A stretch of DNA of 64,000 nt from a virus (IMGVR_UViG_3300042090_002485:62001-126000), one strand, 5' to 3'. Positions 12,920 to 58,447 are shown, counted from the first letter of the stretch. Notes: generated by a model not told the origin, from the letters alone. Numbers and translations: made by a program.

Positions 12920-12936
12920 TGTTTGTGGCATAAACA
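12920..12936 (+). promoter_or_regulatory. 17-bp element TGTTTGTGGCATAAACA before polA
   Basis: A near-palindrome (TGTTTGTG-G-CATAAACA with one mismatched pair) in the 30-bp gap before the DNA polymerase gene. The ATG lies only 9 nt downstream and no Shine-Dalgarno is present. If the element acts as a -10-type promoter, the mRNA would be nearly leaderless. Closely related sequences occur at 16417, 50976 (- strand), 53120, 56216 and 58431. Confidence 0.5.
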
Positions 12937-12945
12937 CAAGACCCG

Positions 12946-15900
12946 ATGGCCGAGAAGAAGCCCAAGACCAAACTGCCGGTCATCCCGCTCGACCATCCGT
13001 CGCTCGACCCCGAGATGCAGGGGTCGCAGAAGACTGGGATGGCCTGCAACGGCTGCGACCTGTTCTACAAGCGGCGCGTCACCGGCCAGGGCGCGTTCGG
13101 TAAGGTCGACATCCTGCTGCTCGGCGAGTCGCCGTCGTCGTGGTCGGTGCACAACGAACAGGTGTTCTACGGGCGCGGCGGTCGCATCATCCGTCAGGTC
13201 TGGCGTGAGCTGAAGGACCTCGATGCCAAGCGCGGGGGCCACCTCAAGATGGCCCACCTGAAGAAGTGGGAGACCTACGCCGTCCAGTGCCAGGTCGAAG
13301 AAGGGCGCGACCAGAATGCGACGGCGACCGCAGCGACCGTGCACCGCTGCTCGCACTACCTGCGCGCCAAGCTCCACAACTGCAAGCCGAAGATCATCCT
13401 GGCGTTCGGCGCCACCGCGCTGCGCTCGCTCGGCTACAAGAGCGACAAGTTCATGGAGGCGCGTGGGCGCCTGCTCGACGTCGAGATCGACGGGGTGGTC
13501 TACAAGGTCCTGCCGACGTTCTCGACCAAGCACCTCGTCGCCAAGACCGGGCTCTACAACCTGTTCTACGCCGACTTCGTGCGCGCGGTGCGCATCGCTG
13601 GCGGCGTCGACGAGGTTGGTGCGAACACCACGCTCGAGGAGATCACCAAGGAGTACCGCATCCCCAAGACCGTGGAAGAGGTCGGGGAGCTGTGCGATCA
13701 CATCATCAACTACGTCGTCGAGGGCGCCAAGACCGCGGCGCAGTGCGCGATCGCGGTCGACACCGAGACCAACACGGTCAACCCGCACCGCCGCGACGCG
13801 AAGCTGCTGTGCATCTCGTTCGCGTGGGACACCGGGCGGTCCTGCGCGATCCCGCTGTTCCACAAGGAGGCGACGTGGACACCGCAGGAGCTGGAGGCCG
13901 TCGTCGCGCACGTCCAGCGCGTGCTCGCCTGCGCCAAGCCCAAGGTCTTCCACAACGCCAAGTTCGACCTCAAGTTCATCGAGCTGCGCTACGGCTGGCG
14001 CGTCAACAACGTGCAGTGGGACTCGCTGCTCGGCGAGCACCTGCTGCGCGAGGACATGTCGGGGTCATACTCGCTCAAGACGCTCGGGCGCAGCTACTTC
14101 CCGATGTTCGGCAGCTATGCGGACAAGGTCCACGAGCTGGCGGAGAAGATGACACCCGAGGAGGTCGGGCTGTACTCGGTGCTCGACGGGGTCAAGAAGG
14201 GCAAGCCGAAGAAGGATGTGGTCGGCATCGAAGAAGGCCAGCTCTACCTCTACTCGAAGAAGGAGATGGAGCAGTACCTGTTCGGCACCAAGCGTGAGCG
14301 CAAGAAGAAGGTGTTCGACGCGGGTTACGAGCGCGTGCCAATCGACACCCTGTTGATCTACGCGGCCGTCGACACCGACTTGACCCGCCGCCTGCTCCGC
14401 CACCAATTCGCGCGCGCGCAGGCGGAGAACTTCATTGGCTCGGCTCGCGGCCTGATGGCGTCGCACTGCATCCCGGCGTCGCGCGCGCTCGGCAAGATGG
14501 AGTTCGACGGCTTCCGCGTTGACCGTCCGTACCTCGACAAGCTCGAGGTCGACCTGGGCAAGATCGTCGAGGATAAGCGCAAGCTGCTCGAGGCCTACTG
14601 GGCGCCGACCTCGATGAGTCGCAAGGGTGTCGAGTTCAACCCCAACTCGACCCAGCACATCGAGCAGGTCATCTTTCAGACCGGCGTCGGTCCCGACGAA
14701 GTCACTCAGGCGGCCTACCGCAAGGCCGTCGATCGTTTCGCCGTCAAGAACAAGTCGGGCTTCTATAAGACCGACAAGAAAACGCTCAAGGGCATCGCTG
14801 AGCAGACGAAGTGTCCGTTCTCTAAGGCGCTGCTCGAGTACCGCGCGGCGCACAAGGCGCTCTCTGGGTTCGTCAAGGACATCAAGGACCTCTCGGAGTA
14901 CGACGGCTACCTCCACACCAGCTTCCACCTGCACGGTACGTCGACGGGGCGCCTGTCGTCGTCGAACGTGAACATGCAGAACCAGCCCAAGAAGCTGGCC
15001 GGGGTGAACATCAAGAAGATCTTCATCCCGGATGACCCGGACGAAGAGGTGGTGTTCAACGTCGACTGGAAGGGCGCCGAAATCCGCGTGTTCACGGCCT
15101 ATGCGCCAGACCAGCAGCTGATCGACGCGCTCAACGCGGGGCAGGACGTCCACAGCTGGTTCACGCAGGAGATCTACGGCATCCCGTACGAAGAGGTCGA
15201 GGCCAAGAAGGAGGACACCGACTACATCGTCCCCGGCCACGGCATCACCATGAACATGTTGCGGACGACCGTGAAGCGCGTCGTGTTCGGCATCCTCTAC
15301 GGCGCGATGGCAAAGAAGATCGCTGAGACGGCTAGCATCTCCGAGGAGATGGCCCAGGGCGTCATCGACAAGCTGTTCGAGCGGTTCCCGTCGCTGAAGA
15401 ACTACATGGACGAGGTGGTGGCGCAGATCCACCAGCACGGCTTCGTCGAGACGCTGTTCAACCGCCGCCGCCGCTTCCCGCTGCAGTCCGTCAACGGCTT
15501 CTTCCGCGGTCAGGCCGAGCGCCGCGGCAAGAACATGAAGATCCAGTCGACGTCGTCGGACATCGTCGTCGGCCAGCTGATCGAGATCTTCGAGCACATC
15601 CGCGAGCTGGGCGGGCGGCTCGCCATCACCGTGCACGACTCGATCGTCGGCACGATCAAGAAGAAGCTCCTCCACCAGGCCAAGGCGTTCTTCGACCTGT
15701 ACTGCGTCAAGCGCGTGCGCGAGAAGTGCCCGTGGCTGCCCGTCGACTTCGCGTACGACCTGGCGGTGGGCCCGAGCTACGGCGAGGTCATCTCGCTGGA
15801 GGACTACTTGAAAAAGAACCCGGGCATCACCCAGACGCCCGAGCAGGAGTTCCTCGAGCTGCTCGATCAGGACGCGATGGCGTCGTTCGTCCTCGACGAG

Positions 15901-15975
15901 GACGGCGCGCGACCGGACTCGATGTTCGACACCGAGGACCCCGGACCCGAGGACGAAACCAAGGAGGCGTCGTGA
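12946..15975 (+). CDS. polA: family A DNA polymerase with N-terminal uracil-DNA-glycosylase-like domain and 3'-5' exonuclease
   Basis: A 1009-aa replicative polymerase in three parts. Residues 30-220 resemble family 4/5 uracil-DNA glycosylase: Fe-S-type cysteines C34, C37, C115 and C135, a GESPSSW loop at 60-66, and a KPKIILAFGATA strand. Residues 260-480 are a DnaQ-fold 3'-5' exonuclease (D272-x-E274, HNAKFD at 336-341). The polymerase domain has motif A (D707-W-K-G-A-E), motif B (R773 ... K777 ... Y785-G786) and motif C (H897-D898-S). A UDG-PolA fusion is known in SPO1-type phages. The ATG follows a 17-bp promoter-like element by 9 nt with no Shine-Dalgarno. Its stop overlaps the next GTG. 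Confidence 0.93.
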   Translation: MAEKKPKTKLPVIPLDHPSLDPEMQGSQKTGMACNGCDLFYKRRVTGQGAFGKVDILLLGESPSSWSVHNEQVFYGRGGRIIRQVWRELKDLDAKRGGHLKMAHLKKWETYAVQCQVEEGRDQNATATAATVHRCSHYLRAKLHNCKPKIILAFGATALRSLGYKSDKFMEARGRLLDVEIDGVVYKVLPTFSTKHLVAKTGLYNLFYADFVRAVRIAGGVDEVGANTTLEEITKEYRIPKTVEEVGELCDHIINYVVEGAKTAAQCAIAVDTETNTVNPHRRDAKLLCISFAWDTGRSCAIPLFHKEATWTPQELEAVVAHVQRVLACAKPKVFHNAKFDLKFIELRYGWRVNNVQWDSLLGEHLLREDMSGSYSLKTLGRSYFPMFGSYADKVHELAEKMTPEEVGLYSVLDGVKKGKPKKDVVGIEEGQLYLYSKKEMEQYLFGTKRERKKKVFDAGYERVPIDTLLIYAAVDTDLTRRLLRHQFARAQAENFIGSARGLMASHCIPASRALGKMEFDGFRVDRPYLDKLEVDLGKIVEDKRKLLEAYWAPTSMSRKGVEFNPNSTQHIEQVIFQTGVGPDEVTQAAYRKAVDRFAVKNKSGFYKTDKKTLKGIAEQTKCPFSKALLEYRAAHKALSGFVKDIKDLSEYDGYLHTSFHLHGTSTGRLSSSNVNMQNQPKKLAGVNIKKIFIPDDPDEEVVFNVDWKGAEIRVFTAYAPDQQLIDALNAGQDVHSWFTQEIYGIPYEEVEAKKEDTDYIVPGHGITMNMLRTTVKRVVFGILYGAMAKKIAETASISEEMAQGVIDKLFERFPSLKNYMDEVVAQIHQHGFVETLFNRRRRFPLQSVNGFFRGQAERRGKNMKIQSTSSDIVVGQLIEIFEHIRELGGRLAITVHDSIVGTIKKKLLHQAKAFFDLYCVKRVREKCPWLPVDFAYDLAVGPSYGEVISLEDYLKKNPGITQTPEQEFLELLDQDAMASFVLDEDGARPDSMFDTEDPGPEDETKEAS

Positions 15976-16241
15976 TCATCGTCTGCGAGTTGGCGTCCTG
16001 TCCGAGCTGCGGCCGGGCGCCCAAGCCCTCGTTTCAGAGGACCAAGGAATACGTCCGCTGCTACTTCGGCTGCACCTGCGGCTGGGCCGGCCCCCTCGTC
16101 GCCCAGGCGATCCCGCCAGCCGCGAAGCCCGGGTCTCCGTCGGTGTGCAAGCGCACCGACACTAGGGCCTGGGCTCAGTACAACGCGGCCGAGGCGTGGA
16201 ACACGGCGGTGACTCAAGTGCGGGCGGCGAAGCCCGTGTAG
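15972..16241 (+). CDS. Lar-like restriction alleviation / zinc-ribbon protein
   Basis: An 89-aa protein with a GTG start inside the polA stop region (GTGA overlap). It has CPSCG near the N-terminus, a second C-x3-C-x-C group (CYFGCTCGWAGP), and a C-terminal NAAEAWNTAV, i.e. the CPFCG ... C-x-x-CGA-x-GP ... EA-x-x-AWN plan of the Lar family. Rac-prophage Lar modulates type I restriction. Many phages carry similar proteins of unproven function, so the assignment is to fold and family, not to activity. Confidence 0.6.
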   Translation: MIIVCELASCPSCGRAPKPSFQRTKEYVRCYFGCTCGWAGPLVAQAIPPAAKPGSPSVCKRTDTRAWAQYNAAEAWNTAVTQVRAAKPV

Positions 16242-16484
16242 GAGGTTTGGGACCGGCTACGAGGGGTCCACGGTGCGCACTACCTCTCCTTGCCCTTCTG
16301 AAGCGTCTGTTCGGCGAGCTGGCGATAGAGTGTGCGACGACAGGTTGGTGTAGGCCTGTCGGGCTCGAGTCCATAGCTAGCTCTAGGCCGCGAAGCAGAT
16401 GTGCCGGTTCCTCTTTTGTTTGTGCGGTAAACACTTGCGAAGTAACCCTATTGTCTTGGTATAAGCTGGTGCAGAGGACCATCG
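16242..16484. other. 243-bp non-coding region before dnaQ-like gene
   Basis: No ORF with a plausible start was found. A 6-bp hairpin GACAGG ... CCTGTC with a 10-nt loop lies at 16339-16360. The 17-bp element is at 16417-16433. A TATAAG sequence at about 16460 and an AGAGGA ribosome binding site sit before the ATG at 16485. The region may hold a terminator-like hairpin for the polA operon, a small RNA, and the promoter for the next gene. Confidence 0.4.
16417..16433 (+). promoter_or_regulatory. 17-bp element TGTTTGTGCGGTAAACA
   Basis: It differs from the - strand element at 50976-50992 at a single position and from the polA element at three. It lies 51 bp before the ATG of the DnaQ-like gene. 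Repetition in unrelated intergenic regions argues for a phage promoter or operator. Confidence 0.5.
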
Positions 16485-17051: not shown

Positions 17052-19769
17052 CTACGTGAAGCGCAAGTTGCCGCTTAGGACACCGTTGGCGAGCCAGCCG
17101 AAGACCTGGGCGTGAAGCGAGTCGTCGGGCATGGTCGGGGAGTGGCGCCAGACCCTGCGCCCGGCGTGCGTGACCTCCTCGTAGACGTTGAGGATGTCGT
17201 TGATGGCTGGCTGCGCGTCCGACAGGCGCGGGAAGATGACCTGCTTGTGCAAGAGCTGACGGGCGTAATTGTCGATCATCGTCGTGCGGTCGACGTGGTA
17301 GGCCAGCGTCGAGGGGTTCCAGGTCTCCATCGGCTTGGACAGGTTCAGGTAGCGGAACGCGAGCACACGATGGTCACCGAGCCGCTGACGTAGGAACGAG
17401 TTGGCCAACATGCCCTCGCCCGCGTCGGCGCCGACCATCTCGACGCCCCACTTGTTGCACAGCTCGACGATCTCGTCGATCCAGCCCACGGCGTGGCCGT
17501 TCGGGAAGATCTTCGACGTCAGGGTGCGGAGCCGTCCGTCGGCCTGCTGACCCCAGATGTGGAGCACGGTGCGGGATTTGTAAAGCCCTTCGCTGCCTTT
17601 GACTTCGCCGCCGCCACCCGACCAGTCAACGCCCGCCGTCGTGCGGACGATGCCCTTCTTCGCGCCGGGCTGCGGCAATCGTTCGATGACGAGCTTCTCG
17701 TCACACAACGATTCGAGGACCTCCTTGGTCAGGAGGCGCACGCCGGTCGACGTGCTCACGCCGATGCACTCGTTCAAGAACTTGGACTCGCCGTAGAGTG
17801 GCGAGTTCATCTTGTAGAGCAGCTTGTCCCAACGCTCGACAGCACGGTCGAAGCCTTCGCTGCCGGGAACCCACGCGGCGGGCACGTCCGTCGGCATGAT
17901 GGCCTGGCTAACGTGGAAGCCCTTGATGCTCGCCCCGGGCACCATGTCGACCCACTTGCCCGCCCGCGGGTTCAGTAGGTGGCCGCACGAGACGCAGATC
18001 AGACCCTTCTTGCCGAGCGCCTTGACGCCGTCGACGAACGTCCACTTGCTGCAACCGTCGCACCGCATACACCACTCGGTCTGGGTCGACAGCGACCACA
18101 GGACCTCGATGGTGTTCTCCATCGTCTTGGGCGTGCCCGCGTACGCCGAGTACTGGTAGTTCGAGCGGGCCATGCACTCCTCGATGACGGGGATGACGGC
18201 CTCGTAGAGCATGTCCTGGATCTCGTCGAAGCACTGACCCGCGATTATCGGTCGTTGATCGACCCCGCCGCGCACGATGGGCCGATGATGCGGCACCGTG
18301 AAGCAGTAGACCGGTTCGTTGACGACTTCTTCAACAGACACGCGTCGCTTGGTCGCATATTCAGATCGCCAGAACACGGCGTGCGACTCGGCGTACGCCT
18401 GCACCTCGTAGAGGGGAAGTGGCGGTCCGCCAGGGCGCTGCGGCATCTGCCGCGTGTGTACGACCGCAGGGCGCCCGAGCAGCGCCCAGGCGCGATGCAC
18501 GTCGTCGGCCAGGCGACGCGACCGCGTTCGCAGCGTGCCGTGGTCCCACCGGTCGATCACGATACTCGCGTCACCTTGGTAAAGAGCCCGCAGCAGGGAT
18601 GGCAGCAGTGCCGGGTGCTCGAAGAACACGGCTGGGATGTACTTGCTGAAGCTGTTCCCCAAGGGCGCGACGTACTGACAAACCTGCGAGGACGCGATTA
18701 CGTAGGTGTGTTTGACGACGCGCCCTTTCTTGGTCTGACGCGACGACGGCTGCCGCGAGTACGTGAACCCGCAGCGACGCAGGCAGTCCTCGATGTCGAG
18801 ACTGTATCGGGATGCGTTCTGCGTGATGATGGCACTACCGTTCCGGCGCACTCCCTTCGTCCGGCGCCAAGAAACGTGGCCCTCCGCAAGGTACCAGCCC
18901 ATGAACTCAGAGAAGGCGCGCGCGTCGACATCGACCGGCGAGCGGCTCGTCGCGTAACCAATGGAACTGCCGGGCACGTGGATGACGACAGGCGGGGCAT
19001 CGTCGATGCGACACGCGCTTGTCATCTTGAAGCCCATGCGTTCAGTGCGTGCGATGTCCAGCGCGGAAGCGAATTGCCAGACATCTGGTGTCTTGTAGCG
19101 CGGGCCCGTCTTTACGCGAAAGTTGACCCACATCTTGTGGTCCCCGGTCACGCGAAGGTCCATCCCGGCGTGGTGAAACTTGACCATCTGACCGGTGTAC
19201 GGCAACGCGAAGAGCTTCGACGGACGGTGCCACCGGATACAGCCCTCGTCATCTACATCAGCGACTTCGTCTGCGAGGGTCAGGTCTTTGACGCAGCGCC
19301 AGCCGGCACGCGTAAGCACTTGAGCGCTCGCGTCGAAGCAGCACCGGTCTGCCGAGTAACCACGAGCGCGGTCCGGGTCGTCCATGGCGTACGTGAACGC
19401 CATCTCCGACCCGTTCTTGAGCATGCGCAACAGGACGTTGTCGATCGACTCCGGGCCGACGAACGCCTTCCGCACGTCGGGGCTGTACGCCAGGATCTTG
19501 GCGACGCGGGTGTGCGAGAACTTCCGCGTTTGCTCCTGGGTCGGCGAAATGTAGTACGACCTGAACGGCGCGGACGCGATGGCCTCGGCGATCATGAACG
19601 CCGCAAGCGTCGTCGACTTGGTGACCTGGCGCCCGGTCTTCAGCAGCAGGCGCGAGTAGTTGCCGTCGAACACGGCCTGGAACATCGGGTAGTCCGCCAG
19701 TGACAGCGGCTTGCCGTCGACGTAGAACAACCCCTGCGCGATGGTGGAGCGATAAACCTCTTCCGACAT
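17052..19769 (-). CDS. terL: terminase large subunit interrupted by an intein
   Basis: A 905-aa precursor. The mature terminase would be 536 aa. Its ATPase has a P-loop-like GRQVTKST at 46-53 and a Walker B CFDEIQDM that is created only after splicing. A zinc ribbon (CMRCDGC ... CVSCG) follows, then an RNase H-fold nuclease with acids in GVDWSGG, GADAGEG and PDDSLHAQ. The intein occupies residues 144-512. TerL cuts and pumps concatemeric DNA into proheads at the portal. The zinc ribbon between ATPase and nuclease resembles GpA-type terminases. It is transcribed alone on the - strand, divergent from the MoxR gene across 37 bp and with a weak Shine-Dalgarno. Confidence 0.92.
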   Translation of the reverse strand: MSEEVYRSTIAQGLFYVDGKPLSLADYPMFQAVFDGNYSRLLLKTGRQVTKSTTLAAFMIAEAIASAPFRSYYISPTQEQTRKFSHTRVAKILAYSPDVRKAFVGPESIDNVLLRMLKNGSEMAFTYAMDDPDRARGYSADRCCFDASAQVLTRAGWRCVKDLTLADEVADVDDEGCIRWHRPSKLFALPYTGQMVKFHHAGMDLRVTGDHKMWVNFRVKTGPRYKTPDVWQFASALDIARTERMGFKMTSACRIDDAPPVVIHVPGSSIGYATSRSPVDVDARAFSEFMGWYLAEGHVSWRRTKGVRRNGSAIITQNASRYSLDIEDCLRRCGFTYSRQPSSRQTKKGRVVKHTYVIASSQVCQYVAPLGNSFSKYIPAVFFEHPALLPSLLRALYQGDASIVIDRWDHGTLRTRSRRLADDVHRAWALLGRPAVVHTRQMPQRPGGPPLPLYEVQAYAESHAVFWRSEYATKRRVSVEEVVNEPVYCFTVPHHRPIVRGGVDQRPIIAGQCFDEIQDMLYEAVIPVIEECMARSNYQYSAYAGTPKTMENTIEVLWSLSTQTEWCMRCDGCSKWTFVDGVKALGKKGLICVSCGHLLNPRAGKWVDMVPGASIKGFHVSQAIMPTDVPAAWVPGSEGFDRAVERWDKLLYKMNSPLYGESKFLNECIGVSTSTGVRLLTKEVLESLCDEKLVIERLPQPGAKKGIVRTTAGVDWSGGGGEVKGSEGLYKSRTVLHIWGQQADGRLRTLTSKIFPNGHAVGWIDEIVELCNKWGVEMVGADAGEGMLANSFLRQRLGDHRVLAFRYLNLSKPMETWNPSTLAYHVDRTTMIDNYARQLLHKQVIFPRLSDAQPAINDILNVYEEVTHAGRRVWRHSPTMPDDSLHAQVFGWLANGVLSGNLRFT
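18234..19340 (-). mobile_element. LAGLIDADG intein in TerL Walker B
   Basis: A 369-aa protein intron. Block A starts CFDASAQVLTRAGWRCVKDL. Block B has the T-G-D-H motif (208-211). Two dodecapeptides of a LAGLIDADG homing endonuclease are FMGWYLAEGH (289-298) and LLRALYQGDA (392-401). Block F is PVYCFTVPHHRPIVRGG. The intein ends in A-G-Q before Cys+1 (CFDEIQ). The terminal Gln and the lack of the usual penultimate His are non-canonical but known in some inteins. Both junctions carry the same 10 bp (plus strand CGTCGAAGCA at 18224-18233 and 19331-19340). Confidence 0.9.
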
Positions 19770-19806
19770 ACAGCTAGCAACTCAAATCTTCCGAAGGAAT
19801 TCGACC

Positions 19807-21755: not shown

Positions 21756-21758
21756 GGC

Positions 21759-30447: not shown

Positions 30448-30464
30448 CGTCGGCACGGTAAACA
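30448..30464 (+). promoter_or_regulatory. partial 17-bp element (CGGTAAACA) before 30472 gene
   Basis: Only the right half (GCACGGTAAACA) matches the 16417 and 50976 elements. The ATG comes 7 nt later and has no Shine-Dalgarno, the same close spacing as at polA. Weaker candidate than the others. Confidence 0.3.
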
Positions 30465-30471: not shown

Positions 30472-30678
30472 ATGCATAACTGCGACAATTGCCAGGTGCC
30501 CTTCGATCCCGACAAGGAGGGCCTGGTTACCCGCGAGCGGGGACGTTTGGCGTCCGGCATCTGCGCCGCCTGCATCAAGGACGTGACGCTCCTCAAGATT
30601 GTCCTACGACGCAAGGATGTCGGCGGGTTTGCGTACGAGCAGTACGCTCCGCTCGAAGTCCGCAAGAAGGCCGGGTGA
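30472..30678 (+). CDS. small zinc-finger protein (68 aa)
   Basis: A 68-aa protein with CDNCQVPFD at the N-terminus and CAACIKD about 20 residues later, giving two C-x-x-C knuckles and probably one structural zinc. The C-terminus is basic. It begins 24 nt after nrdJ with no Shine-Dalgarno but close behind a partial promoter-like element. It overlaps the next GTG by 4 nt. Possibly a small regulator; function unknown. Confidence 0.6.
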   Translation: MHNCDNCQVPFDPDKEGLVTRERGRLASGICAACIKDVTLLKIVLRRKDVGGFAYEQYAPLEVRKKAG

Positions 30679-39532: not shown

Positions 39533-40635
39533 CAGGTTGGCTTCCCGTCTGACCAGAGGCCGGTCGTGAAGTCGAACGTCATCGGTGTCTGGACCTGGGG
39601 GCTGGCGCCAGTGAACCCCGTCGTCGCCGCGGTGAGCGCGGAAGTCTCCACCGCGATGGTCAGGGCGACGAAGTTGGCGTGCGCGGACTGCAGCGCCTTA
39701 ACGGCAGCGACGTTGTTATTCTCAAGCGTCGTCGCGCGATCGACGGTGAGCGACAAGTTGGCCGCGCGCGCGGTCGCCATCTGACTGCCGACCGGCGCGA
39801 GCGGCGGTACGGCGACGGCCGCCGAGCTGCCCGCGATGGTCGAGTCGGGATGGCCGGGCCAGTAGTTCGGCACCAGCGATGTCGGGTTGACTAGCGCGCG
39901 CAGCGCCCCGGAGATCAGCGCGGCCTGGAACCGCATCACGATGCCTGTCGCGGCCTGCGTCGAGAATCCAGGCTTGGTCCATCCCGTGGCGCCGCCCGCC
40001 CCGCCGACGGTGCCGATCGCCTGACCGGCGCCGATGACCTGGCCGTTCTTCACCGAGACCTGGGAGAGCCGGTAGTACTCGGTCTGGTAGCCCTGGAAGT
40101 CGCCATTGTGCTGGATGACGACGTAGATTCCGCCGTAGCCGATGTTCCCCATCGCAGCGGACGCGACCACCGTATCCTGGAAGTCGAGGACGGTCTGCGC
40201 CTGCTCGTTCGCATGCACGTCCGCAACCTCGGCCGAGCCCTGGGTCAGCTGAACGCCGACGAAGCGCACGACGCCGTCGGCGGCGGCGAACACGCTCTCA
40301 CCGAGCGTCGCGGCGTACTCGAGCGCCTGGTTGTAGGTCGCCACGCTGCCTGGCGGCGTTGCGGCGAACGGCAGCGGGTCGCCCCAGCCGCTGGTGACCA
40401 ACCGCTCGTTGCCCGGACCCTGCGCGAGCCCGCCTTTCTCGGCGAGCGGAGAACCGAACTGCTGGCGCAGCGGCGCCGGCGCGGTCTCGTAGAAGTAGGT
40501 CTTCGTCACCGGGTCGAACTCGGGGAAGGCCGGCGCCTGGTTCAGGTCCGAGCCAACGCGAGCGCGCTGCGCGGCGACCGCGCGCATCAGGTTCTGCGCG
40601 ATCGCGTCCTGCGGGGAGGCGGGGCTACCGGCCAC
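39532..40635 (-). CDS. tail/baseplate protein with degenerate M23 peptidase fold
   Basis: A 367-aa protein. Residues about 110-225 follow the M23/lysostaphin fold: AAADGVVRFVG, YGGIYVVIQHNGDF, TEYYRLSQVSVKNGQVIGAGQAIGTVG. The active-site HxH that normally appears in an H-L-H-F-E strand is replaced by MRFQAAL, so zinc catalysis is doubtful. It may be a structural hub or spike that uses the fold for binding. The C-terminal third is helical, Ala/Thr-rich. It begins inside the end of the sigma-like gene and ends in the gp25 start. Confidence 0.7.
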   Translation of the reverse strand: MAGSPASPQDAIAQNLMRAVAAQRARVGSDLNQAPAFPEFDPVTKTYFYETAPAPLRQQFGSPLAEKGGLAQGPGNERLVTSGWGDPLPFAATPPGSVATYNQALEYAATLGESVFAAADGVVRFVGVQLTQGSAEVADVHANEQAQTVLDFQDTVVASAAMGNIGYGGIYVVIQHNGDFQGYQTEYYRLSQVSVKNGQVIGAGQAIGTVGGAGGATGWTKPGFSTQAATGIVMRFQAALISGALRALVNPTSLVPNYWPGHPDSTIAGSSAAVAVPPLAPVGSQMATARAANLSLTVDRATTLENNNVAAVKALQSAHANFVALTIAVETSALTAATTGFTGASPQVQTPMTFDFTTGLWSDGKPT

Positions 40636-41383
40636 GGTCTTTACCCTCAGTGACGGCCTGGACGCGCGCGACGAGCTTGCCCTTGAGGTGCGAGTACTGC
40701 CCCTGTGTCAAGCCGAGCTTCTTCTGGATGTCCTGGTTCGACAACACCTCGGAATTCGCATAGCCAGTGAGGTGCTCGAAGATCACCTTCTGCGGCGGCG
40801 GTAGGTCGTGGTGGATGAAGTCGACGATGTGGTCGCTCTCGTCGGCGTCGTAGAGCCCGGCGTCGCTGCCCTCGAACAGGCCGCCGCTCTCGAGCATCTC
40901 GCGGCGCCCAATCGAGCGCTGGTACTCCCCGACCTTGTCGATCGGCCACGCCAGGCGGTCCGCCAGCTCGTCTACCGTCGGCGCGCGTCCGAGCGCGTCG
41001 GACAGCTCAGCGTGGGCGACATTGTAGCCGTGATAGAGCAACATGCGATTTTCTGGAAGTCGAGCGACATTCTGGTTAGTGTAGGACAGCCGCGACATGC
41101 GCTGCAGCTGGTTGACGACATGCGTGCCCAGCGCCGCGCCCTTCGCCGGATCGTAGCTGTGGAACGCCTGCATCGCGAGGCGTTTGCCTTCCGTCTCTAG
41201 CAGCGGCCGCGCGAGCGTGCCCGACCACTTATTCGCCTCGCGGTGGATCAGCGGAGAAACCTGCGCGAGCAGCGCGCTCGCGTTGGCATCCGTCGGCGCT
41301 GCCTTCCACACGCGCCACGCGTCCATGTCCGACGTCTGTCGGGTGGTCGCAGCGAGCTTCGCGATGGCAGCGAGCTTGGTCAC
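40625..41383 (-). CDS. second sigma-70-like factor, embedded in the tail operon
   Basis: A 252-aa protein. AFHSYDPAKGAALGTHVVNQLQRM resembles region 2. NVARLPENRMLLYHGYNVAHAE plus GRAPTVDELADRLAWPIDKVGEYQR is a clear region 3-like segment (compare the LGREPTxEELA motif of sigma factors). The C-terminus DLPPPQKVIFEHLTGY ... QDIQKKLGLTQGQYSHLKGKL is a region 4-like HTH. It is much smaller than the 5245-6333 factor. It may direct late transcription or be carried in the virion; both are inferences. Overlaps its neighbours by 4 and 11 nt. Confidence 0.78.
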   Translation of the reverse strand: MTKLAAIAKLAATTRQTSDMDAWRVWKAAPTDANASALLAQVSPLIHREANKWSGTLARPLLETEGKRLAMQAFHSYDPAKGAALGTHVVNQLQRMSRLSYTNQNVARLPENRMLLYHGYNVAHAELSDALGRAPTVDELADRLAWPIDKVGEYQRSIGRREMLESGGLFEGSDAGLYDADESDHIVDFIHHDLPPPQKVIFEHLTGYANSEVLSNQDIQKKLGLTQGQYSHLKGKLVARVQAVTEGKDRGR

Positions 41384-50940: not shown

Positions 50941-50975
50941 CGTTATTTGGTACAAGGAAACGACGCCGGACACAA

Positions 50976-50992
50976 TGTTTACCGCACCAACA
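50976..50992 (-). promoter_or_regulatory. 17-bp element TGTTGGTGCGGTAAACA between divergent tail and DinG genes
   Basis: On the - strand it differs from the 16417 element at one base. It lies 35 bp before the chaperone ATG, so it probably drives the whole late tail operon, and 2-20 bp before the divergent DinG start. The dyad-like nature could let it serve both directions. Confidence 0.5.
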
Positions 50993-51012: not shown

Positions 51013-53133
51013 GTGCCGACGCTCCAAGAACTGCTCTCCAACCCCGCTCACGGTCTCGTCAAGGAAGCGCGTCCCGCTCAGCTCGCGATGGCCGCAGCTG
51101 TCGAGCAGGTCTTGCGTGACGGTGGAGCTTACTTCGTCGAGGCGCCGGTTGCTACCGGCAAGACGTACGCGTACCTGCTGCCTGCGCTGCTCGCTCAAGG
51201 CAAGCGCGTTGTGGTGGCGACCGCCAAGAAGCAGCTGCAAGACCAGATCGTCGAGAAGGACTTCCCCGCGCTCAAGCGCATCCTCGGCATCCGCGCCGCT
51301 TCGATGGTGGCCACGCCGCTCAAGGGCAAGGGCACCTACGCTTGCCAGCTCGCGGCCAATGCGATCCTGGACCGCGGCGACGAAGACCGCACGGTGTTCG
51401 ACCGGTTCCTGGCGCGCTCGCTCTATGGCGACCGAGCCGACTACGGCGGCGCTGTGCCAGCGTGGTGGTCACAGGCCACCGCGGAAGACTGCGTCGGCAA
51501 GCGCTGCGCTTACTTTAGCGACTGCGGCTATATCCGCCTCAAGCAAGCCGTGCGCGAGTCCCAGCTCGTCGTCGTCAACCATCACGTCCTGGGTGCCGAC
51601 ATGTTCTTGGGCCTGGGCAAGATGGTGGGTGGCGCCTACGACGTCCTGGTCGTCGATGAGGCCCACACGCTCGCCGCCGGTATCCGCGCTGCGTTCTCGC
51701 ACAAGCTCGGCGAGGACTCGATCGGCCAGGTCTGGGAGCTGCTCAAGCGCACAGGCCTGGTGTTCCCGCAACTGCGAAAGCTGCTCGAGCCGTGGGGCGC
51801 GATGTTCGAGGCTGTCCCCGATCGCGGGTTCGAGTCGAAGTCGCGCGAGGCTCCGGTATTCCCCGGCGGCATGGCCGCCGCGATCATCGAGAACCTGCGG
51901 CTCGCCGCGGGTGAGCTGGCCAAGACGCTGACGACGTTCGGCGGCACCGCGTTCGAAGACGCGCCGGAGGAGATGCCAGAGGACATCTACGTCGACGGCG
52001 AGCCGATCGAGGCCATCGAGGTGGACAAGGCCGCGCACGCGATTGCGGTCGAGGAGGAGAATGCGCGCGTTCAGGGCGTGCTGACCCAAGCCCAGAAGCG
52101 CGTCGACCAGCTGCTCCGCGGTTTGTCGACAGCGCAGGGCGTGGTCGAGCCGGACACCACCATCACCGACCCCGAGCAGGTAGAGATGCGGCGCGCGCGC
52201 ATCTTGGCCAACACGGCGATCTACTCGACGGTCGATGACCGCGGGCGCTTCGCAGTCAAGTGCGAGCCCGTGAGCGTAGGTGGCATCGCTGGGCGCTACC
52301 TCGCCGCGCTCAAGACGGTCGTGGTGTGCAGCGCGACACTCGCGCACGACAGCAAGTTCGAGCACGTCGAGAACATGACCGGCCTATCTCCGGTCAAAGC
52401 CGAGGTCCTGCCGACGTCGTTCGACTACGACAAGCAGGGCTTCGTGTTCATCCCGCGGGGGCTGGCCATCCCCGGGCGCAAGGACCCGGAGTACGACGCC
52501 GTCATGCGCAAGCGCGTCGACATGGCGGTGCGCCTGGTCGAGCTGTCCGAGGGCGGCGCGTTCATCTTGACCACCGCAAACGACGAGCTGGATGCCTTCG
52601 CGACCGCACTCAAGCAGCGCTTCCCGGGCCGCACGTTCGCGCAGGGCCACCGCAAGAACCCATGGGACGGTGACCCCAACGCCGCGCTCGCCAAGTTCAA
52701 GACGACGCGCGACTCCGTGCTGGTCGGCTCGAAGTCGTTCTGGGAGGGTGTCGATGTACCCGGCGGCGACCTTCGCCTGGTGATCGTCGCGAAGCTGCCG
52801 TTCCCGCACTTCAACGACCCGATCATCAAGGCCCGCGAACGGCTCGCGGGCGACAACGCGTTCCGTGACGTCCAGCTCGTAGACATGTTGGTTGACCTGC
52901 GCCAAGGCGTCGGGCGGCTCATCCGTACGCGCGCGGACCGCGGCTGCGTCGCCATCCTAGATTCCCGGATCTGGGAGAAGGGCTACGGCGGGCTCGTGCG
53001 CCGCGCGTTGCCGTGGTCGAACAACCTGGTGACGTCGGACTTCGCGAACTGCGAGAAGATCCTGCCGCGCTACGTGGCGTACTTCCGGCGTCAAGCCCTC
53101 GCAGGTAGCTCCGCTCTGGCGTTTGTGGGATAA
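51013..53133 (+). CDS. DinG/XPD-like superfamily 2 helicase
   Basis: A 706-aa helicase. Walker A EAPVATGKT (43-51), motif Ia ATAKKQLQ, a four-cysteine Fe-S region (GTYACQ ... DCVGKRCAYFSDC), VNHH, DEAH in VVDEAHTL, VVVCSATL, and a final GVGRLIRT motif VI. This is the Fe-S DinG/XPD type, a 5'-3' helicase in repair or R-loop removal. The GTG at 51013 has GGGAG 5 nt upstream. The in-frame ATG at 50995 is possible, but its Shine-Dalgarno would have to lie inside the promoter element. The stop codon falls within the next 17-bp element. Confidence 0.88.
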   Translation: MPTLQELLSNPAHGLVKEARPAQLAMAAAVEQVLRDGGAYFVEAPVATGKTYAYLLPALLAQGKRVVVATAKKQLQDQIVEKDFPALKRILGIRAASMVATPLKGKGTYACQLAANAILDRGDEDRTVFDRFLARSLYGDRADYGGAVPAWWSQATAEDCVGKRCAYFSDCGYIRLKQAVRESQLVVVNHHVLGADMFLGLGKMVGGAYDVLVVDEAHTLAAGIRAAFSHKLGEDSIGQVWELLKRTGLVFPQLRKLLEPWGAMFEAVPDRGFESKSREAPVFPGGMAAAIIENLRLAAGELAKTLTTFGGTAFEDAPEEMPEDIYVDGEPIEAIEVDKAAHAIAVEEENARVQGVLTQAQKRVDQLLRGLSTAQGVVEPDTTITDPEQVEMRRARILANTAIYSTVDDRGRFAVKCEPVSVGGIAGRYLAALKTVVVCSATLAHDSKFEHVENMTGLSPVKAEVLPTSFDYDKQGFVFIPRGLAIPGRKDPEYDAVMRKRVDMAVRLVELSEGGAFILTTANDELDAFATALKQRFPGRTFAQGHRKNPWDGDPNAALAKFKTTRDSVLVGSKSFWEGVDVPGGDLRLVIVAKLPFPHFNDPIIKARERLAGDNAFRDVQLVDMLVDLRQGVGRLIRTRADRGCVAILDSRIWEKGYGGLVRRALPWSNNLVTSDFANCEKILPRYVAYFRRQALAGSSALAFVG

Positions 53134-53136
53134 ACC
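53120..53136 (+). promoter_or_regulatory. 17-bp element CGTTTGTGGGATAAACC before XRE gene
   Basis: It matches the GTTTGTG-n-n-ATAAAC core of the polA element. It overlaps the TAA stop of the DinG-like gene and lies 25 nt before the XRE regulator ATG. It would allow independent transcription of the 53.2-55.9 kb cluster. Confidence 0.45.
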
Positions 53137-53161
53137 TGCAACGACTATCATTCCGCTCGCA

Positions 53162-53368
53162 ATGCACGCCAAGGACTATGACGCCCTGCTCAAGGAACTG
53201 CGCGAGACGCGGGAAGCCCGCGGCATGACGCAGGCACAGGTTGCCCAGGGCATCAAGCTGTCGCGGGCGCAGTACACGGCAATCGAACGCGGCCGCTCCC
53301 TGCTCAACTGGACCCACCTGAAGCGCTTGGCCAAGGTCCTCAAGCGCAGCTGGGTCATCAAGGCATGA
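53162..53368 (+). CDS. XRE-family helix-turn-helix regulator
   Basis: A 68-aa protein, MHAKDYDALLKELRETREARG, followed by the HTH MTQAQVAQGIKLSRAQYTAIERG, the Cro/CI (XRE) pattern in minimal length. It is likely a DNA-binding regulator of phage genes. A promoter-like 17-bp element lies just upstream, so it could be autoregulated. Its stop overlaps the next ATG (ATGA). Confidence 0.82.
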   Translation: MHAKDYDALLKELRETREARGMTQAQVAQGIKLSRAQYTAIERGRSLLNWTHLKRLAKVLKRSWVIKA

Positions 53369-54173: not shown

Positions 54174-54175
54174 CC

Positions 54176-54382: not shown

Positions 54383-54384
54383 CT

Positions 54385-55085: not shown

Positions 55086-55098
55086 AGAGGAGTCAACC

Positions 55099-55401
55099 GT
55101 GGCTGAGAAACCCTGCAACCAGTGTCAGCACTACGACCCAATCATTCGAGGCAAGGACAAGCAAGGCAAGCACGGACGGTGCGCCGCCAAGTCGACCTAC
55201 CCCGCCACCGAGCAGAAGGGCCAGGTGTTCCCGCCCGGCGTCGCCCGCGCGCCGGACGGTGAACTGTGCAAGCCCGTCATCGTGATCGGAACGGAGATCG
55301 TCGCGACCTGCGACCTGTTCAAGATCAAGCCGACAGTCAAACCCATCCCCCGCGGCGCGCCCAAGCCCCTGCCGCCGAACCCGACCATCAGGAGGCGGTG
55401 A
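55099..55401 (+). CDS. Cys-rich small protein (100 aa)
   Basis: A 100-aa protein behind GAGAGGAG. It has CNQCQHYD, GRCAAK, ELCKP and ATCDLF, i.e. five cysteines in a C-x-x-C ... C ... C ... C pattern that could ligate a metal or Fe-S cluster. The tail is Pro/Lys/Arg-rich (KPIPRGAPKPLPP). The stop overlaps the next ATG. Function unknown. Confidence 0.62.
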   Translation: MAEKPCNQCQHYDPIIRGKDKQGKHGRCAAKSTYPATEQKGQVFPPGVARAPDGELCKPVIVIGTEIVATCDLFKIKPTVKPIPRGAPKPLPPNPTIRRR

Positions 55402-55715
55402 TGGCGAACCCCGAGAACAAGAAGTTCGCGGAAGGCGTCACGATGTCCGACGCTGCCCGTCAGGAAGTTCAGAAGCGCATCGACGCCCGCACTGCGAACG
55501 ATCACCTGCTCGAGGCTGCCAAGGAGGCCGAGGACTTGGTCCGCCTCATGGTCGGACGTTGGCAGGAGCGCGGGTTCACGTTCGAGCAGGGCACGTTTGC
55601 GCTCGCGCTTGCAACCATCAACTTCCGCGAGACCGCACCGGAGAAGAATGGCGGCAAAGAAGCGTTCGACCTCGTCGCGCACGAGGCCCACGTCTACTAC
55701 CACGCCAACAAGTAG
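55401..55715 (+). CDS. hypothetical helical protein (104 aa)
   Basis: A 104-aa protein starting MANPENKKFAEGV at a TGATG overlap. It is almost entirely helical and charged (VQKRIDARTANDHLLEAAKEAEDLVRL). No cysteines or catalytic motifs. The next gene appears to begin inside its 3' end. Confidence 0.6.
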   Translation: MANPENKKFAEGVTMSDAARQEVQKRIDARTANDHLLEAAKEAEDLVRLMVGRWQERGFTFEQGTFALALATINFRETAPEKNGGKEAFDLVAHEAHVYYHANK

Positions 55716-55926
55716 CGGGCGGGTATACGGTACCGTCGTCGACGTCGAAGGCGTTCGCCATCACGCGTCAGCCATGTCTCACGCGGTTTTCGGCGGGGAC
55801 ACGATCACCTCGTGCAACCGGTATCTCAGCCTGCCGCCGCAACCCGGCGGCACGGTGACGTGCGTACGCTGCATCGCACGCACGCTGATCCCTGTGAAGG
55901 GGGAGGACATCCTCCGTGGCGACTAG
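55648..55926 (+). CDS. small Cys protein, VTCVxC family member 4
   Basis: A 92-aa protein, ATG behind GGAG (GGAGAAGAATG), overlapping the previous gene by 68 nt. After a Ser/Thr/Arg-rich lead it has VEGVRHH, TSCNRYL and TVTCVRCIA, matching the D-x-x-GVVH ... C ... VTCVRC plan of the tandem paralogues at 24.3-24.8 kb, 31 kb away. A start at a later codon is possible, because the homologous core begins near residue 28. Confidence 0.55.
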   Translation: MAAKKRSTSSRTRPTSTTTPTSSGRVYGTVVDVEGVRHHASAMSHAVFGGDTITSCNRYLSLPPQPGGTVTCVRCIARTLIPVKGEDILRGD

Positions 55927-56194
55927 CAAGACCGACCCGGACGTCGCCTGGCGCGACGGCGATGCTGAGATCGGGATCGGTTGCGACGACCGCCCACGCA
56001 GCGAGATCATCCACTGGGTGCGTGCGATCGCTTACGGCACCTACGGCTGGTCGCTGAGCCTGGCCTGCGGGCCCGGCCAGGGCTACCGGAGCCGACTCGT
56101 TAAATGGCCGCAGTGGCTGACCCGCGCGCACGTCAACTGCGTGCAGTGCCTCGCAAGCGACCGCTTCGCGCGCTACGCCTACGCGACAAGTTGA
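55916..56194 (+). CDS. small Cys protein, VTCVxC family member 5 (divergent)
   Basis: A 92-aa protein with a GTG start overlapping the previous stop, preceded by a GGGGGAGG ribosome binding site. A Trp-rich middle is followed by SLACGPG and HVNCVQCLA, the VTCVRCLA motif with one change. The GVVH block is weak (EIIHWVRAIAYGTYG). Probably a diverged member of the same family. Confidence 0.55.
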   Translation: MATSKTDPDVAWRDGDAEIGIGCDDRPRSEIIHWVRAIAYGTYGWSLSLACGPGQGYRSRLVKWPQWLTRAHVNCVQCLASDRFARYAYATS

Positions 56195-56215
56195 CGCGTT
56201 TTCACTAATCTTCTA

Positions 56216-56232
56216 TGTTGGTCTGACAAACA
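56216..56232 (+). promoter_or_regulatory. 17-bp element TGTTGGTCTGACAAACA before DGQHR gene
   Basis: It matches the 50976 element at 13 of 17 positions, including both TGTTGGT and AAACA ends, and lies 19 nt before the ATG in a 57-bp gap. Consistent with a repeated phage promoter or operator. Confidence 0.4.
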
Positions 56233-56251
56233 TCACAAGCAAGGAACCACC

Positions 56252-57217
56252 ATGTCTCTCAAGCTCATCAAGCCGACCACCGACGCGCAGCTAACCACGC
56301 ACACGACGACCGATACCCTCGAGGTCACCCCAGACGTCGTGCGGAGCTGGGAACTGCCGCCTTTCCAGCGCGACCTCAAGGTCACCGACCGCCTCATTGA
56401 CATCGCCAAGGAGATCAAGGCGAACTCCGGCGTCATCCCGGGCGTCATCACGCTCGGCGTGCTCGAAAACATCCGTTACAAGGTCGACGGGCAGCATCGC
56501 CTCGAGGCGTTCCTGCAATCGGAGTGTCTCGTCGGGTACTGCGACGTCCGCATCCTGTACTTCAAGACGATGGCCGAGATGGCCGCCGAGTACTACCGGC
56601 TGAACTCGCGCATCGTCAACATGAAGCCGGACGACTATCTCAAGGCGCTCGAGAGCGAGAACACAGCGCTCGCGAAGCTTCGCAAGCGGTGCCCGTTCAT
56701 CGGCTACGGCATGATCCGTCGCAACGACAAGGGTCCGATCTTGTCGATGTCTGCGGTTCTCCGTGGCTGGAACCTGGCGTCCAAGGACACCCCGAGCGGT
56801 GGCGGCTGCGCGACGACGGACATCGCCAAGACGCTTAGCGTCGACGACGTGGACCAGCTCGGCGCGTTCTTGACCGCGGCGATCACTGCGTGGGGGCGCG
56901 ACCGCGAGTACATGCGCCTGTGGGGCGGGCTCAACCTGACCCTGTGTATGTGGCTCTACCGCCGCCTCGTGATCGAGCAATACTCGACCAAGACGCCGAA
57001 GCTCACCAACGAGCAGTTCGGCAAGTGTCTGATGGCGGTGTCGGCGGACTCGCTGTACCTGAACTACTTGCAGGGGCGCCAGCTCTCGCACGAACATCGC
57101 AGCCCGACGTACAACAAGCTCAAGCAGATCTTCGCAGGTCGGATCGAGGTTGACACGGGGAAGAAGCCGCAGCTTCCGCAGCCGTCGTGGACGTCGTCGA
57201 TGCGTGGTCACCGGTAG
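56252..57217 (+). CDS. DGQHR-domain / ParB-like protein
   Basis: A 321-aa protein. LPPFQRDLKVTDRL and YKVDGQHRLEAF are the two landmarks of the DGQHR/ParB-like fold seen in DndB and in phage proteins. The C-terminal two thirds are helical, with several Cys. DndB regulates DNA phosphorothioation genes; phage homologues are uncharacterised and may bind DNA or nucleotides. It is preceded by an A/T-rich gap with the 17-bp element and CAAGGAACC as ribosome binding site. It converges on the dNMP kinase gene. Confidence 0.72.
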   Translation: MSLKLIKPTTDAQLTTHTTTDTLEVTPDVVRSWELPPFQRDLKVTDRLIDIAKEIKANSGVIPGVITLGVLENIRYKVDGQHRLEAFLQSECLVGYCDVRILYFKTMAEMAAEYYRLNSRIVNMKPDDYLKALESENTALAKLRKRCPFIGYGMIRRNDKGPILSMSAVLRGWNLASKDTPSGGGCATTDIAKTLSVDDVDQLGAFLTAAITAWGRDREYMRLWGGLNLTLCMWLYRRLVIEQYSTKTPKLTNEQFGKCLMAVSADSLYLNYLQGRQLSHEHRSPTYNKLKQIFAGRIEVDTGKKPQLPQPSWTSSMRGHR

Positions 57218-57220
57218 GCG

Positions 57221-57243
57221 AGGCGACGAACTCTGTCGCGCCT
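57221..57243. terminator. bulged hairpin between convergent genes
   Basis: An AGGCG-a-CGA stem pairs with TCG-CGCCT across ACTCTG, in the 24-bp gap between the DGQHR gene and the dNMP kinase stop. No U-tract follows on either strand, so it is only a candidate bidirectional terminator. Confidence 0.3.
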
Positions 57244-58018
57244 ATTCGTGGCGCATTCGAAACGACTCGTATTGCTCGACCACGCGAGCGCGGAGCACCT
57301 CGAGCGTGGCGTCGTTCATGATGACGGCGTCGAACTCCGTGTCCGGGATGGTGTCCATCTCGGTTTCCGACTGGTGCTTGGCAAGTCCGGTCTGTCGGTT
57401 GTCGTACTCGGGACGACGCACGCGCCAGACCTCACCACCCGCTGCCTTGATCGCGGTCATCTCGCTCTTGAACCGGCAGTCGGTGATGGCGACGAAGAAG
57501 CAGCCCGGCGTGATCGTCGACGGCACGCTACCGTCAGTCGAGCCCAAGCCCATCGGCGTCATCAGACGCGTGATGGCCTTGAACGCGTGGCGCACCCACA
57601 CGTTTGCGTCGACCGCACGACCGAACTCGGTGCCAGCGAACTGGCAGATCTCGCGCCATTCCCAGAACGTCGAGAACGACTTGGTCTCGCCGAGCGCGTT
57701 GCATGACAGGCACTGGGTCTGACCGTCCCGCCCCGGCGACGCAACCTCGCACTTGATGGACTGGCACGCCGGACACTTGAGCAACGGGAAGCTCGTCTTC
57801 GACTTCTTGCCCTCCTCGGTGTAGAGCTGCTCATGTGTGGCGCCGAACAGGTCGGCGACCGCCATCTTGAGCTTGTCGGCGAAGGCGACGAGCCCGCCAC
57901 GCGGATCATGCGCAATGAGCATCTCGCCGACGGTGTCCTTGCCGCTCTTGCTCTTGCCCATGATGCCGATGACACGCTTCGGTTGCACGTCGTGGGTCTT
58001 TTCGGTGTTGCTGTTCAC
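57242..58018 (-). CDS. deoxynucleoside monophosphate kinase
   Basis: A 258-aa kinase with a GTG start (NSNTEKTHDVQPKRVIG) after GGAGG-ttct. The P-loop GKSKSGKDT is at 21-29, followed by GGLVAFADKLK, a T4 gp1/dNMP-kinase-like layout. A Cys-x-x-Cys pair of knuckles (CPACQS ... CLSCNA, about 80-105) forms a zinc-ribbon insertion in the lid region. ITDCRFKSEM is the downstream motif. It phosphorylates dNMPs, complementing RNR and ThyX. It overlaps the upstream gene by 4 nt (GTGA). Confidence 0.85.
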   Translation of the reverse strand: MNSNTEKTHDVQPKRVIGIMGKSKSGKDTVGEMLIAHDPRGGLVAFADKLKMAVADLFGATHEQLYTEEGKKSKTSFPLLKCPACQSIKCEVASPGRDGQTQCLSCNALGETKSFSTFWEWREICQFAGTEFGRAVDANVWVRHAFKAITRLMTPMGLGSTDGSVPSTITPGCFFVAITDCRFKSEMTAIKAAGGEVWRVRRPEYDNRQTGLAKHQSETEMDTIPDTEFDAVIMNDATLEVLRARVVEQYESFRMRHE

Positions 58019-58425
58019 AGAACCTCCAAGTCTTCGATGTACATGACGCGCGTGGGCCAGAACGGCTGCGCGCCGACTCTCATCCCGCAGTCGTCGTCGT
58101 AGAGGTCGACGAACTGACGGACCAGCGTGAGGTGTTCGTCGTCGATGCGCCAGGCTGGACGCGGCGAACCAGACCAGAAGGCGTCGTACTCCGCCCGCCC
58201 GCACGCTTCGCCATCAAACACGATCGCCCGGACCTGCGGGTTGGCAAGGATGTCGCGTACGACGTCCCGCACGAACTTCGCCGAGTCGCCAACGGCCGCG
58301 CAGGCGCGGCCTTTCCACCGCTCAAGGACGCCCGGCCAACGCGGGCTGAGCGGGCAGCTGACGACCAAAATCTGACCCTTAGGCTCGAGGGGCGTGTAGT
58401 CCACCTTCGAGACGGGTCTCCACAT
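58015..58425 (-). CDS. hypothetical protein, MtrA/DUF4346-like
   Basis: A 136-aa protein. GDSAKFVRDVVRDILANPQVRAIVFDGEACG resembles the Nii-x-NP-x-iR-x-l-i-x-G core of MtrA/DUF4346 proteins, a domain sometimes linked to phage thymidylate synthases. It is coupled to dNMP kinase by GTGA overlap, so a nucleotide-metabolism role is plausible but unproven. A promoter-like dyad lies directly upstream, giving a leader of about 5 nt. Confidence 0.55.
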   Translation of the reverse strand: MWRPVSKVDYTPLEPKGQILVVSCPLSPRWPGVLERWKGRACAAVGDSAKFVRDVVRDILANPQVRAIVFDGEACGRAEYDAFWSGSPRPAWRIDDEHLTLVRQFVDLYDDDCGMRVGAQPFWPTRVMYIEDLEVL

Positions 58426-58430
58426 CCCTA

Positions 58431-58447
58431 TGTTTTTGGCATAAGCA
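58431..58447. promoter_or_regulatory. 17-bp dyad TGTTTTTGGCATAAGCA between divergent genes
   Basis: Differs from the polA element at two positions. On the - strand it reads TGCTTATGCCAAAAACA, 13 of 17 matching the same consensus. It sits in the 41-bp gap between the divergent 58425 and 58467 genes, so one element could control both. Confidence 0.45.

What the first reader, a model, noticed from the sequence alone, without database searches (positions are those of the whole stretch)
12920..58447. Recurrent 17-bp TGTTTGTG-nn-rTAAACA element in several intergenic gaps
Sites at 12920 (TGTTTGTGGCATAAACA), 16417, 50976 (- strand), 53120, 56216 and 58431, with weaker ones at 6445, 7648 and 30448, all lie in short gaps before genes. 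Those at 16417 and 50976 differ by one base. Three of them (6445, 50976, 58431) sit between divergent genes. This looks like a phage-specific promoter or operator set, possibly read by the phage sigma factors.
Basis: seen in the sequence. Interest (0 to 1): 0.72.

Follow-up and report, generated by a model that had tools for sequence, protein, structure and literature searches.

The report
Phage-wide operator set, probably Cro-like repressor's
A large uncultured phage family carries about 20 copies of one mirror-image DNA tag just before its DNA-replication and other early-type genes, and almost never among its particle-building genes; the tag is most likely where a tiny phage-made switch protein sits to turn those genes down.

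Summary
The element is real, but it is a 17-bp imperfect palindrome (KGTTTRYnnnRYAAACM), not a one-directional box. A matrix trained on six related phages finds 23 sites in the 187,862-b record (0.7 expected), nine in the window. Seven reader sites hold up, 30448 is weak, 7648 is not a site, and 3397 and 61517 were missed. In six genomes 87 of 103 sites are intergenic (reversed-matrix control: 1 site). Fifteen gene families keep a site in at least 4 of 8 genomes (0.17 expected). Virion-gene gaps lack it (2/107 versus 105/498). The half-sites vary independently, so it is no RNA hairpin. At some genes it overlies the -35 or -10 of a sigma70-like promoter. Best explanation: operator of a dimeric repressor, most likely the phage's 68-aa Cro/C1-type (XRE) protein at 53162-53368, which stands behind a site, has an invariant recognition helix, and whose operon keeps the site even in distant outgroups. 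Sigma-factor recognition is not supported. Binding and repression are inferred, not shown. It works like the dispersed operators of P1 C1, mycobacteriophage L5 and SPbeta, but belongs to none of them.

The parts
3397..3413 (.). operator GGTTTATGTCGCAAGCA, overlapping the start of ORF g84 (3402-3785 +)
   Evidence: 20.3 bits; present at the same place in 5 genomes; the start codon of g84 is my own gene call
6445..6461 (.). operator TGCTTGCCAAGCAAACA between divergent g89 (sigma factor, -) and g90 (Pam3 gp34-like, +); -35-like TTGCCA 6448-6453 and -10-like TAGGGT 6472-6477, 18-bp spacer
   Evidence: 20.2 bits; conserved in 4 genomes
12920..12936 (.). operator TGTTTGTGGCATAAACA, 9 nt before g94 (UDG-exonuclease-DNA polymerase A)
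   Evidence: 26.3 bits; conserved before DNA polymerase in 5 genomes
16417..16433 (.). operator TGTTTGTGCGGTAAACA before g96 (RNase_T-type exonuclease)
   Evidence: 23.5 bits; conserved in 6 genomes
30448..30464 (.). weak candidate operator CGTCGGCACGGTAAACA before small CxxC ORF 30472-30678
   Evidence: 11.9 bits only; the orthologous ORF carries 20.8- and 17.3-bit sites in G009 and G003
50976..50992 (.). operator TGTTTACCGCACCAACA between divergent g121 (-) and g122 (helicase, +)
   Evidence: 22.6 bits; site kept in all 8 main-clade genomes and before g122 in both outgroups
53120..53136 (.). operator CGTTTGTGGGATAAACC before the XRE gene; overlaps -35-like TTGTGG (53123-53128); -10-like TATCAT at 53146-53151, 17-bp spacer
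   Evidence: 21.5 bits; operator plus TATCAT/TAAGAT/TAGAAT-type -10 conserved in relatives
56216..56232 (.). operator TGTTGGTCTGACAAACA before g132; its left half is part of a -10-like TATGTT (56214-56219) with -35 TTGACG (56191-56196), 17-bp spacer
   Evidence: 22.8 bits; promoter-like score 14.0
58431..58447 (.). operator TGTTTTTGGCATAAGCA between divergent g134 (-) and g135 (+)
   Evidence: 21.1 bits; conserved before g135 in 7 genomes
61517..61533 (.). operator GGTTTATGGTATGAGCA between divergent g136 (Thy1-like, -) and g137 (+)
   Evidence: 18.1 bits; g137 carries a site in 6 genomes
53162..53368 (+). 68-aa Cro/C1-type (XRE, HTH_3) protein g123, proposed reader of the operators
   Evidence: Pfam HTH_3 3.6e-12; helix-3 segment LSR[AP]QY[TA]AIExGRS conserved through the clade; four-helix HTH model, pLDDT 82
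51013..53133 (+). g122 helicase (DEAD / Helicase_C_2), first gene of the unit that contains the XRE gene
   Evidence: g122-g123 order kept in relatives and outgroups
5245..6333 (-). g89 sigma-70-type factor (regions 2 and 4)
40625..41383 (-). g115 second, weaker sigma-like protein (region 3), inside the virion-gene module

Best explanation
The element is the operator of a dimeric helix-turn-helix repressor, most likely the phage's own 68-aa Cro/C1-type protein (g123). Two subunits would bind the two half-sites (TGTTTRY and its mirror image) across a free 3-bp middle. Bound operators overlie the -35 or -10 of sigma70-like promoters, or sit a few bases before start codons of tandem genes, and so shut off initiation (and perhaps block elongation) of replication, nucleotide, methylase and regulatory genes, including the g122-g123 unit itself, while virion genes are left alone. 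The likely role is a genome-wide shut-off of early/middle genes with negative autoregulation. Shown: the site set, its palindromy, placement and conservation, and the conserved HTH protein. Inferred: that g123 is the binder, that it dimerises, that it represses, and the timing.
For: 23 sites in the record versus 0.7 in simulated sequence; 103 sites in six genomes, 87 intergenic, versus 1 for the reversed matrix. Fifteen gene families keep the site in at least 4 of 8 genomes versus 0.17 expected, maximum 3 in 1000 placements. Half-sites vary independently, as for a protein dimer on DNA and unlike an RNA stem. Sites in 2/107 virion-gene gaps versus 105/498 elsewhere, P = 8e-8. XRE gene behind a site, with a -10 conserved 17 bp downstream of a -35-like hexamer inside the operator. 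The XRE orthologue is the one HTH_3 protein over the curated cut-off in 11 of 14 records; the three without it are partial. Recognition-helix region nearly invariant while the whole protein is 44-71% identical. Outgroup phages with about 30% identical g122 and an XRE orthologue still carry a 19.8-bit operator directly before g122. The best -35-like offset (-25, of 44) is the register that puts the -10 on the left half-site, and -10-like hexamers cluster at offsets 22-27.
Against: No binding or expression data. Most sites have no recognisable sigma70 promoter. In G004 and G008 the site directly before the XRE gene is missing (kept before g122). A second conserved HTH protein exists (g26, MarR-like). 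The half-site nearer the gene is the stronger one in 68 of 96 cases, an asymmetry that a simple dyad operator does not predict. The 68-aa protein has no separate dimerisation domain. The outgroups carry a second palindrome of the same geometry (CTTTAC-N3-GTAAAG) whose reader is unknown.
Confidence: 0.66

Rival explanations
1. The element is an operator, but of another phage protein (for example the MarR-like winged-helix g26) or of a host regulator, and g123 is not its reader.
For: g26 is conserved in five genomes and is HTH-like. No binding data link g123 to the site. G004/G008 lack a site directly before g123.
Against: g26 was not recovered in the outgroups, which keep the site before the g122-g123 unit. 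The most widely kept site is that of the XRE operon, as expected for autoregulation. 17-bp dyads are typical of Cro/C1-type dimers (own knowledge).
Confidence: 0.2
2. The element is itself a phage promoter read by a phage sigma factor, possibly a symmetric element that fires both ways.
For: Sites are close to starts. The gene-proximal half (RTAAACA) is stronger in 68 of 96 cases. In divergent gaps the weaker half is slightly better than in tandem gaps, P = 0.02. Two sigma-like proteins exist.
Against: The dyad is kept in tandem gaps, where a second direction is useless. Some sites abut or overlap the start codon. Visible promoters use the element in two different registers. Virion genes, the usual target of phage sigma factors, lack it, and two of their modules have another element.
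Confidence: 0.08
3. Stoperator-like roadblocks: the bound protein mainly stops elongating RNA polymerase between tandem genes rather than initiation, as in L5-type mycobacteriophages. (This is a variant of mechanism, not of identity, and can coexist with the best explanation.)
For: Many sites lie in short gaps between tandem genes with no visible promoter, with an orientation bias.
Against: Promoter-overlapping examples exist. The dyad is largely symmetric, whereas L5 sites are asymmetric and orientation-dependent (PMC9283540).
Confidence: 0.25
4. RNA-level element (hairpin or translational operator before the start codon).
For: Positions close to start codons; inverted repeat.
Against: At every pair of positions, pairing is no more frequent than under independence, with no compensatory G-C among the common types at position 5/13. 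The stem would be only about 5 A-U-rich pairs.
Confidence: 0.02

Closest known systems
Phage P1 C1 repressor operators
   Same: About 20 dispersed 17-bp operators of one repressor across a large phage genome (22 in P1, PMC8546580); the repressor's own promoters are targets
   Different: The P1 operator is asymmetric (PMC8546580); here it is a dyad and the proposed reader is a 68-aa HTH_3 protein. P1 is temperate; here no integrase or ParA was found
Mycobacteriophage L5 / cluster A stoperators
   Same: More than twenty sites in promoters and short intergenic gaps, with orientation tied to transcription (PMC9283540)
   Different: L5 sites are 13-bp and asymmetric, bound by a 183-residue monomeric repressor; here a 17-bp dyad and only a bias in orientation
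SPbeta SPBRE / MrpR
   Same: Repeated intergenic element first found in silico and later shown to be the operator of the prophage's master repressor (PMC10516654)
   Different: SPBRE is 15 bp and read by a recombinase-like protein; unrelated reader
Cro / P22 c2 / restriction-modification C-protein type small HTH regulators
   Same: Single-domain HTH regulators of dyad operators; fold matches of the model include P22 c2, C.AhdI, C.Esp1396I and DdrO
   Different: Single operators dispersed over many genes rather than a few clustered operators at one switch

Membership tests
Cro/C1-type (XRE, HTH_3) protein (g123) | HTH_3 domain over curated cut-off | tested here: met
   PF01381 46.6 bits versus cut-off 23
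Cro/C1-type (XRE, HTH_3) protein (g123) | All-helical HTH fold of this family | tested here: met
   Helices 3-20, 24-30, 35-42, 50-60, pLDDT 82; best PDB matches are HTH regulators with probability 1.00, though none has E <= 0.001
Cro/C1-type (XRE, HTH_3) protein (g123) | Binds a dyad operator as a dimer | not testable with these tools
   Dyad found; binding needs EMSA or DAP-seq
Dispersed phage operator regulon (P1 C1 / L5 / SPbeta kind) | Many copies of one site before genes, far above chance | tested here: met
Dispersed phage operator regulon (P1 C1 / L5 / SPbeta kind) | Site at the regulator's own gene or operon | tested here: met
   Site before g123 in 5 genomes; before g122 in all main-clade genomes and both outgroups
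Dispersed phage operator regulon (P1 C1 / L5 / SPbeta kind) | Temperate phage; the repressor keeps the prophage silent | tested here: inconclusive
   No tyrosine or serine recombinase, no AAA_31 ParA, no relative found in GTDB genomes; records may be incomplete
L5-type stoperators | 13-bp asymmetric site | tested here: not met
   17-bp dyad
P1 C1 operators | Asymmetric 17-bp site | tested here: not met
Phage sigma-factor promoter | Directional -35/-10 elements at fixed spacing and register | tested here: not met
   Palindrome; two different registers to sigma70-like promoters
RNA hairpin / cis-regulatory RNA | Compensatory base-pair changes | tested here: not met
   Pairing equals independence at all positions

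The most novel reading that the evidence does not exclude
A clade of large phages with no sign of lysogeny uses one 68-aa Cro-like protein as a genome-wide switch: about 20 single dyad operators set against start codons and promoters shut off the replication and metabolism programme and leave virion genes to run. In a sister lineage the same protein family has moved to a dyad of the same geometry with a changed outer base (CTTTAC-N3-GTAAAG) and a different gene set, a natural rewiring of a regulon.
Probability: 0.3. Interest if true: 0.66.

Novelty: new variant of a known kind. Interest (0 to 1): 0.5.

Why it matters
Dispersed operator regulons are known chiefly from temperate phages (P1, L5, SPbeta). 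Here one appears in an uncultured large-phage clade that shows no lysogeny genes and whose closest cultured terminase is about 30% identical. It separates early-type from virion genes by sequence alone. It gives a one-protein, one-site hypothesis for temporal control that can be tested with a 68-aa protein and a 17-bp oligonucleotide. Together with the outgroup dyad it offers a possible natural case of operator rewiring.

Tried and rejected
RNA hairpin: no covariation. Sigma promoter: rejected on symmetry, register and gene set. Finding the host or a prophage: no relative of the XRE protein or terminase in GTDB genome contigs, no DNA match among phage records, no match of the XRE protein among phage records. 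The first low-threshold matrix iteration drifted to weak genic sites and was tightened. A general demonstration that sigma70 promoters underlie all sites failed: the signal is limited to a minority of genes. A counterpart of the outgroup dyad before virion genes of the main clade was not found, except at g109 of G011.

Full report
Names: gN is the ORF number from my own gene caller. G000 is the window's 187,862-base virus record, of which the window is bases 62001-126000. G001-G013 are related IMG/VR records reached through DNA-polymerase and XRE relatives. G014 and G015 are more distant outgroups reached through the terminase. Gene starts are computed, not curated.

Observation. The underlying element is an inverted repeat: TGTTT-N7-AAACA with one mismatch occurs at 11 places in G000 against one for the pattern read backwards, and relatives show the same excess. 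A symmetric 19-position matrix trained on six genomes (about 20 bits) gives 103 sites of at least 16 bits, 87 of them intergenic, against 1 for the reversed matrix; non-coding sequence is 7-13% of these genomes. G000 has 23 sites of at least 14 bits, against 0.7 in first-order simulated sequence. The matrix was trained on sites of these genomes, so the count alone is partly circular; the reversed control, the intergenic excess and the placement before orthologous genes are not.

Conservation. Upstream of DNA polymerase (g94) and of the XRE gene (g123) the element stands in relatives whose proteins are 63-75% identical. Over eight genomes, 15 gene families carry a site in at least four genomes, against 0.17 expected and at most 3 in 1000 random placements; g121/g122 carry it in all eight, g80/g81 and g135 in seven. 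In outgroups G014/G015, where g122 is 30-32% identical, a 19.8-bit copy still stands immediately before g122. G014 and G015 are 89% identical to each other, so this counts as one observation.

Placement. Among 96 sites within 150 nt of a start codon, the median distance from element to start is 18.5 nt and most lie between 0 and 30 nt. Sites occur in 105 of 498 other gaps but in 2 of 107 gaps inside the virion-gene modules (P = 8e-8; the modules were defined by me from position, strand and annotation). Genes behind sites include an adenine methylase (g22), SNF2 helicase (g81), the gap of a sigma factor (g89/g90), DNA polymerase A with a uracil-glycosylase-like N-terminus (g94), an RNase_T exonuclease (g96), a helicase (g122), the XRE gene (g123) and the gap of a Thy1-like gene (g136/g137).

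Anatomy. Each half-site is TGTTTRY with tolerated TGCTTGY and TGTTGGY. The two halves vary independently: at each position pair the frequency of pairing equals that expected from the column compositions. That fits a protein dimer on DNA and speaks against an RNA stem. Promoter-like sequences occur in two registers. In the first the element covers the -35 (XRE: TTGTGG-17-TATCAT; g90 of relatives: TTGCCA-18-TAGAGT; g22: TTTACA-17-TAGGGT). In the second its left half is part of the -10 (g132 and g169: TTGACG-17-TATGTT). Scored away from the element itself, -10-like hexamers cluster at offsets 22-27, and the best -35-like offset is -25, the register predicted for the second class, but only for a minority of genes. 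Either register places a bound protein on the promoter, so repression is the natural reading; an activator normally sits further upstream (own knowledge).

Reader of the site. g123 is a 68-aa HTH_3 protein. Eleven of 14 records hold one HTH_3 protein over the curated cut-off; the three without it are partial. Nineteen alignment columns are invariant across eight relatives, about half of them in and just after the recognition helix (LSR[AP]QY[TA]AIExGRS). The model is a four-helix HTH whose fold matches include P22 c2, C.AhdI, C.Esp1396I, SinR and DdrO (the model is small and no match has E below 0.001). Direct evidence that g123 binds the element is lacking; g26, a MarR-like protein, is the main alternative.

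Lifestyle. No tyrosine integrase, serine recombinase or AAA_31 ParA was found, and no relative in GTDB species genomes by the motif-based scan. A virulent lifestyle is therefore more likely than a prophage repressor system, but incomplete records and unknown maintenance systems keep this open.

Comparison. Dispersed operator sets with one repressor are known from P1 (22 asymmetric 17-bp C1 operators, PMC8546580), L5-like mycobacteriophages (more than twenty asymmetric 13-mers, PMC9283540) and SPbeta (SPBRE read by MrpR, PMC10516654). This set works like those but is a member of none: it is a dyad, its proposed reader is a minimal Cro-like protein, and it lies in a large phage without detected lysogeny genes. 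A sigma-factor reading has been suggested for intergenic motifs of PB1-like phages (PMC3008698); here the symmetry and the gene set argue against it.

Open point. The outgroups carry a second dyad of the same geometry, CTTTAC-N3-GTAAAG (24 and 17 sites, before virion and other genes and partly inside genes), and an XRE orthologue with altered residues around the recognition helix (CSRSQYAAIEYGHS). Whether the XRE protein changed its target there is not decided.

Noticed in passing
G014 and G015 (loci L124-L133 and L134-L140), e.g. L126 near base 8597: A second, nearly perfect dyad CTTTAC-N3-GTAAAG occurs 24 and 17 times in the two outgroup phages, before virion genes and also inside genes; same geometry as the main operator with the outer G changed to C. 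Reader unknown.
   Followed up: partly
window 50947-50956 (- strand); also G000:59771 outside the window: Asymmetric element CTTnTACCAA stands before virion genes g121 and g78 in most main-clade relatives; candidate late promoter or late operator.
   Followed up: partly
window 17052-19769 (- strand): The large terminase gene carries an insertion of about 360 aa with a LAGLIDADG_3 match next to the conserved CFDE (Walker B-like) segment; absent in G002, G004 and G009. Looks like an intein; G001 and G003 have similarly long versions.
   Followed up: partly
window 12946-15975 (+): DNA polymerase A fused to an N-terminal uracil-DNA-glycosylase-superfamily domain plus a 3'-5' exonuclease domain.
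   Followed up: no
window 53146-53162: The predicted -10 of the XRE gene lies so close to its ATG that the transcript would be nearly leaderless; some other operators abut the ATG directly (e.g. before g80).
   Followed up: no
window 40625-41383 (- strand): Second sigma-like protein (Sigma70_r3 only, weak PHROG sigma match) encoded within the virion-gene module.
   Followed up: no
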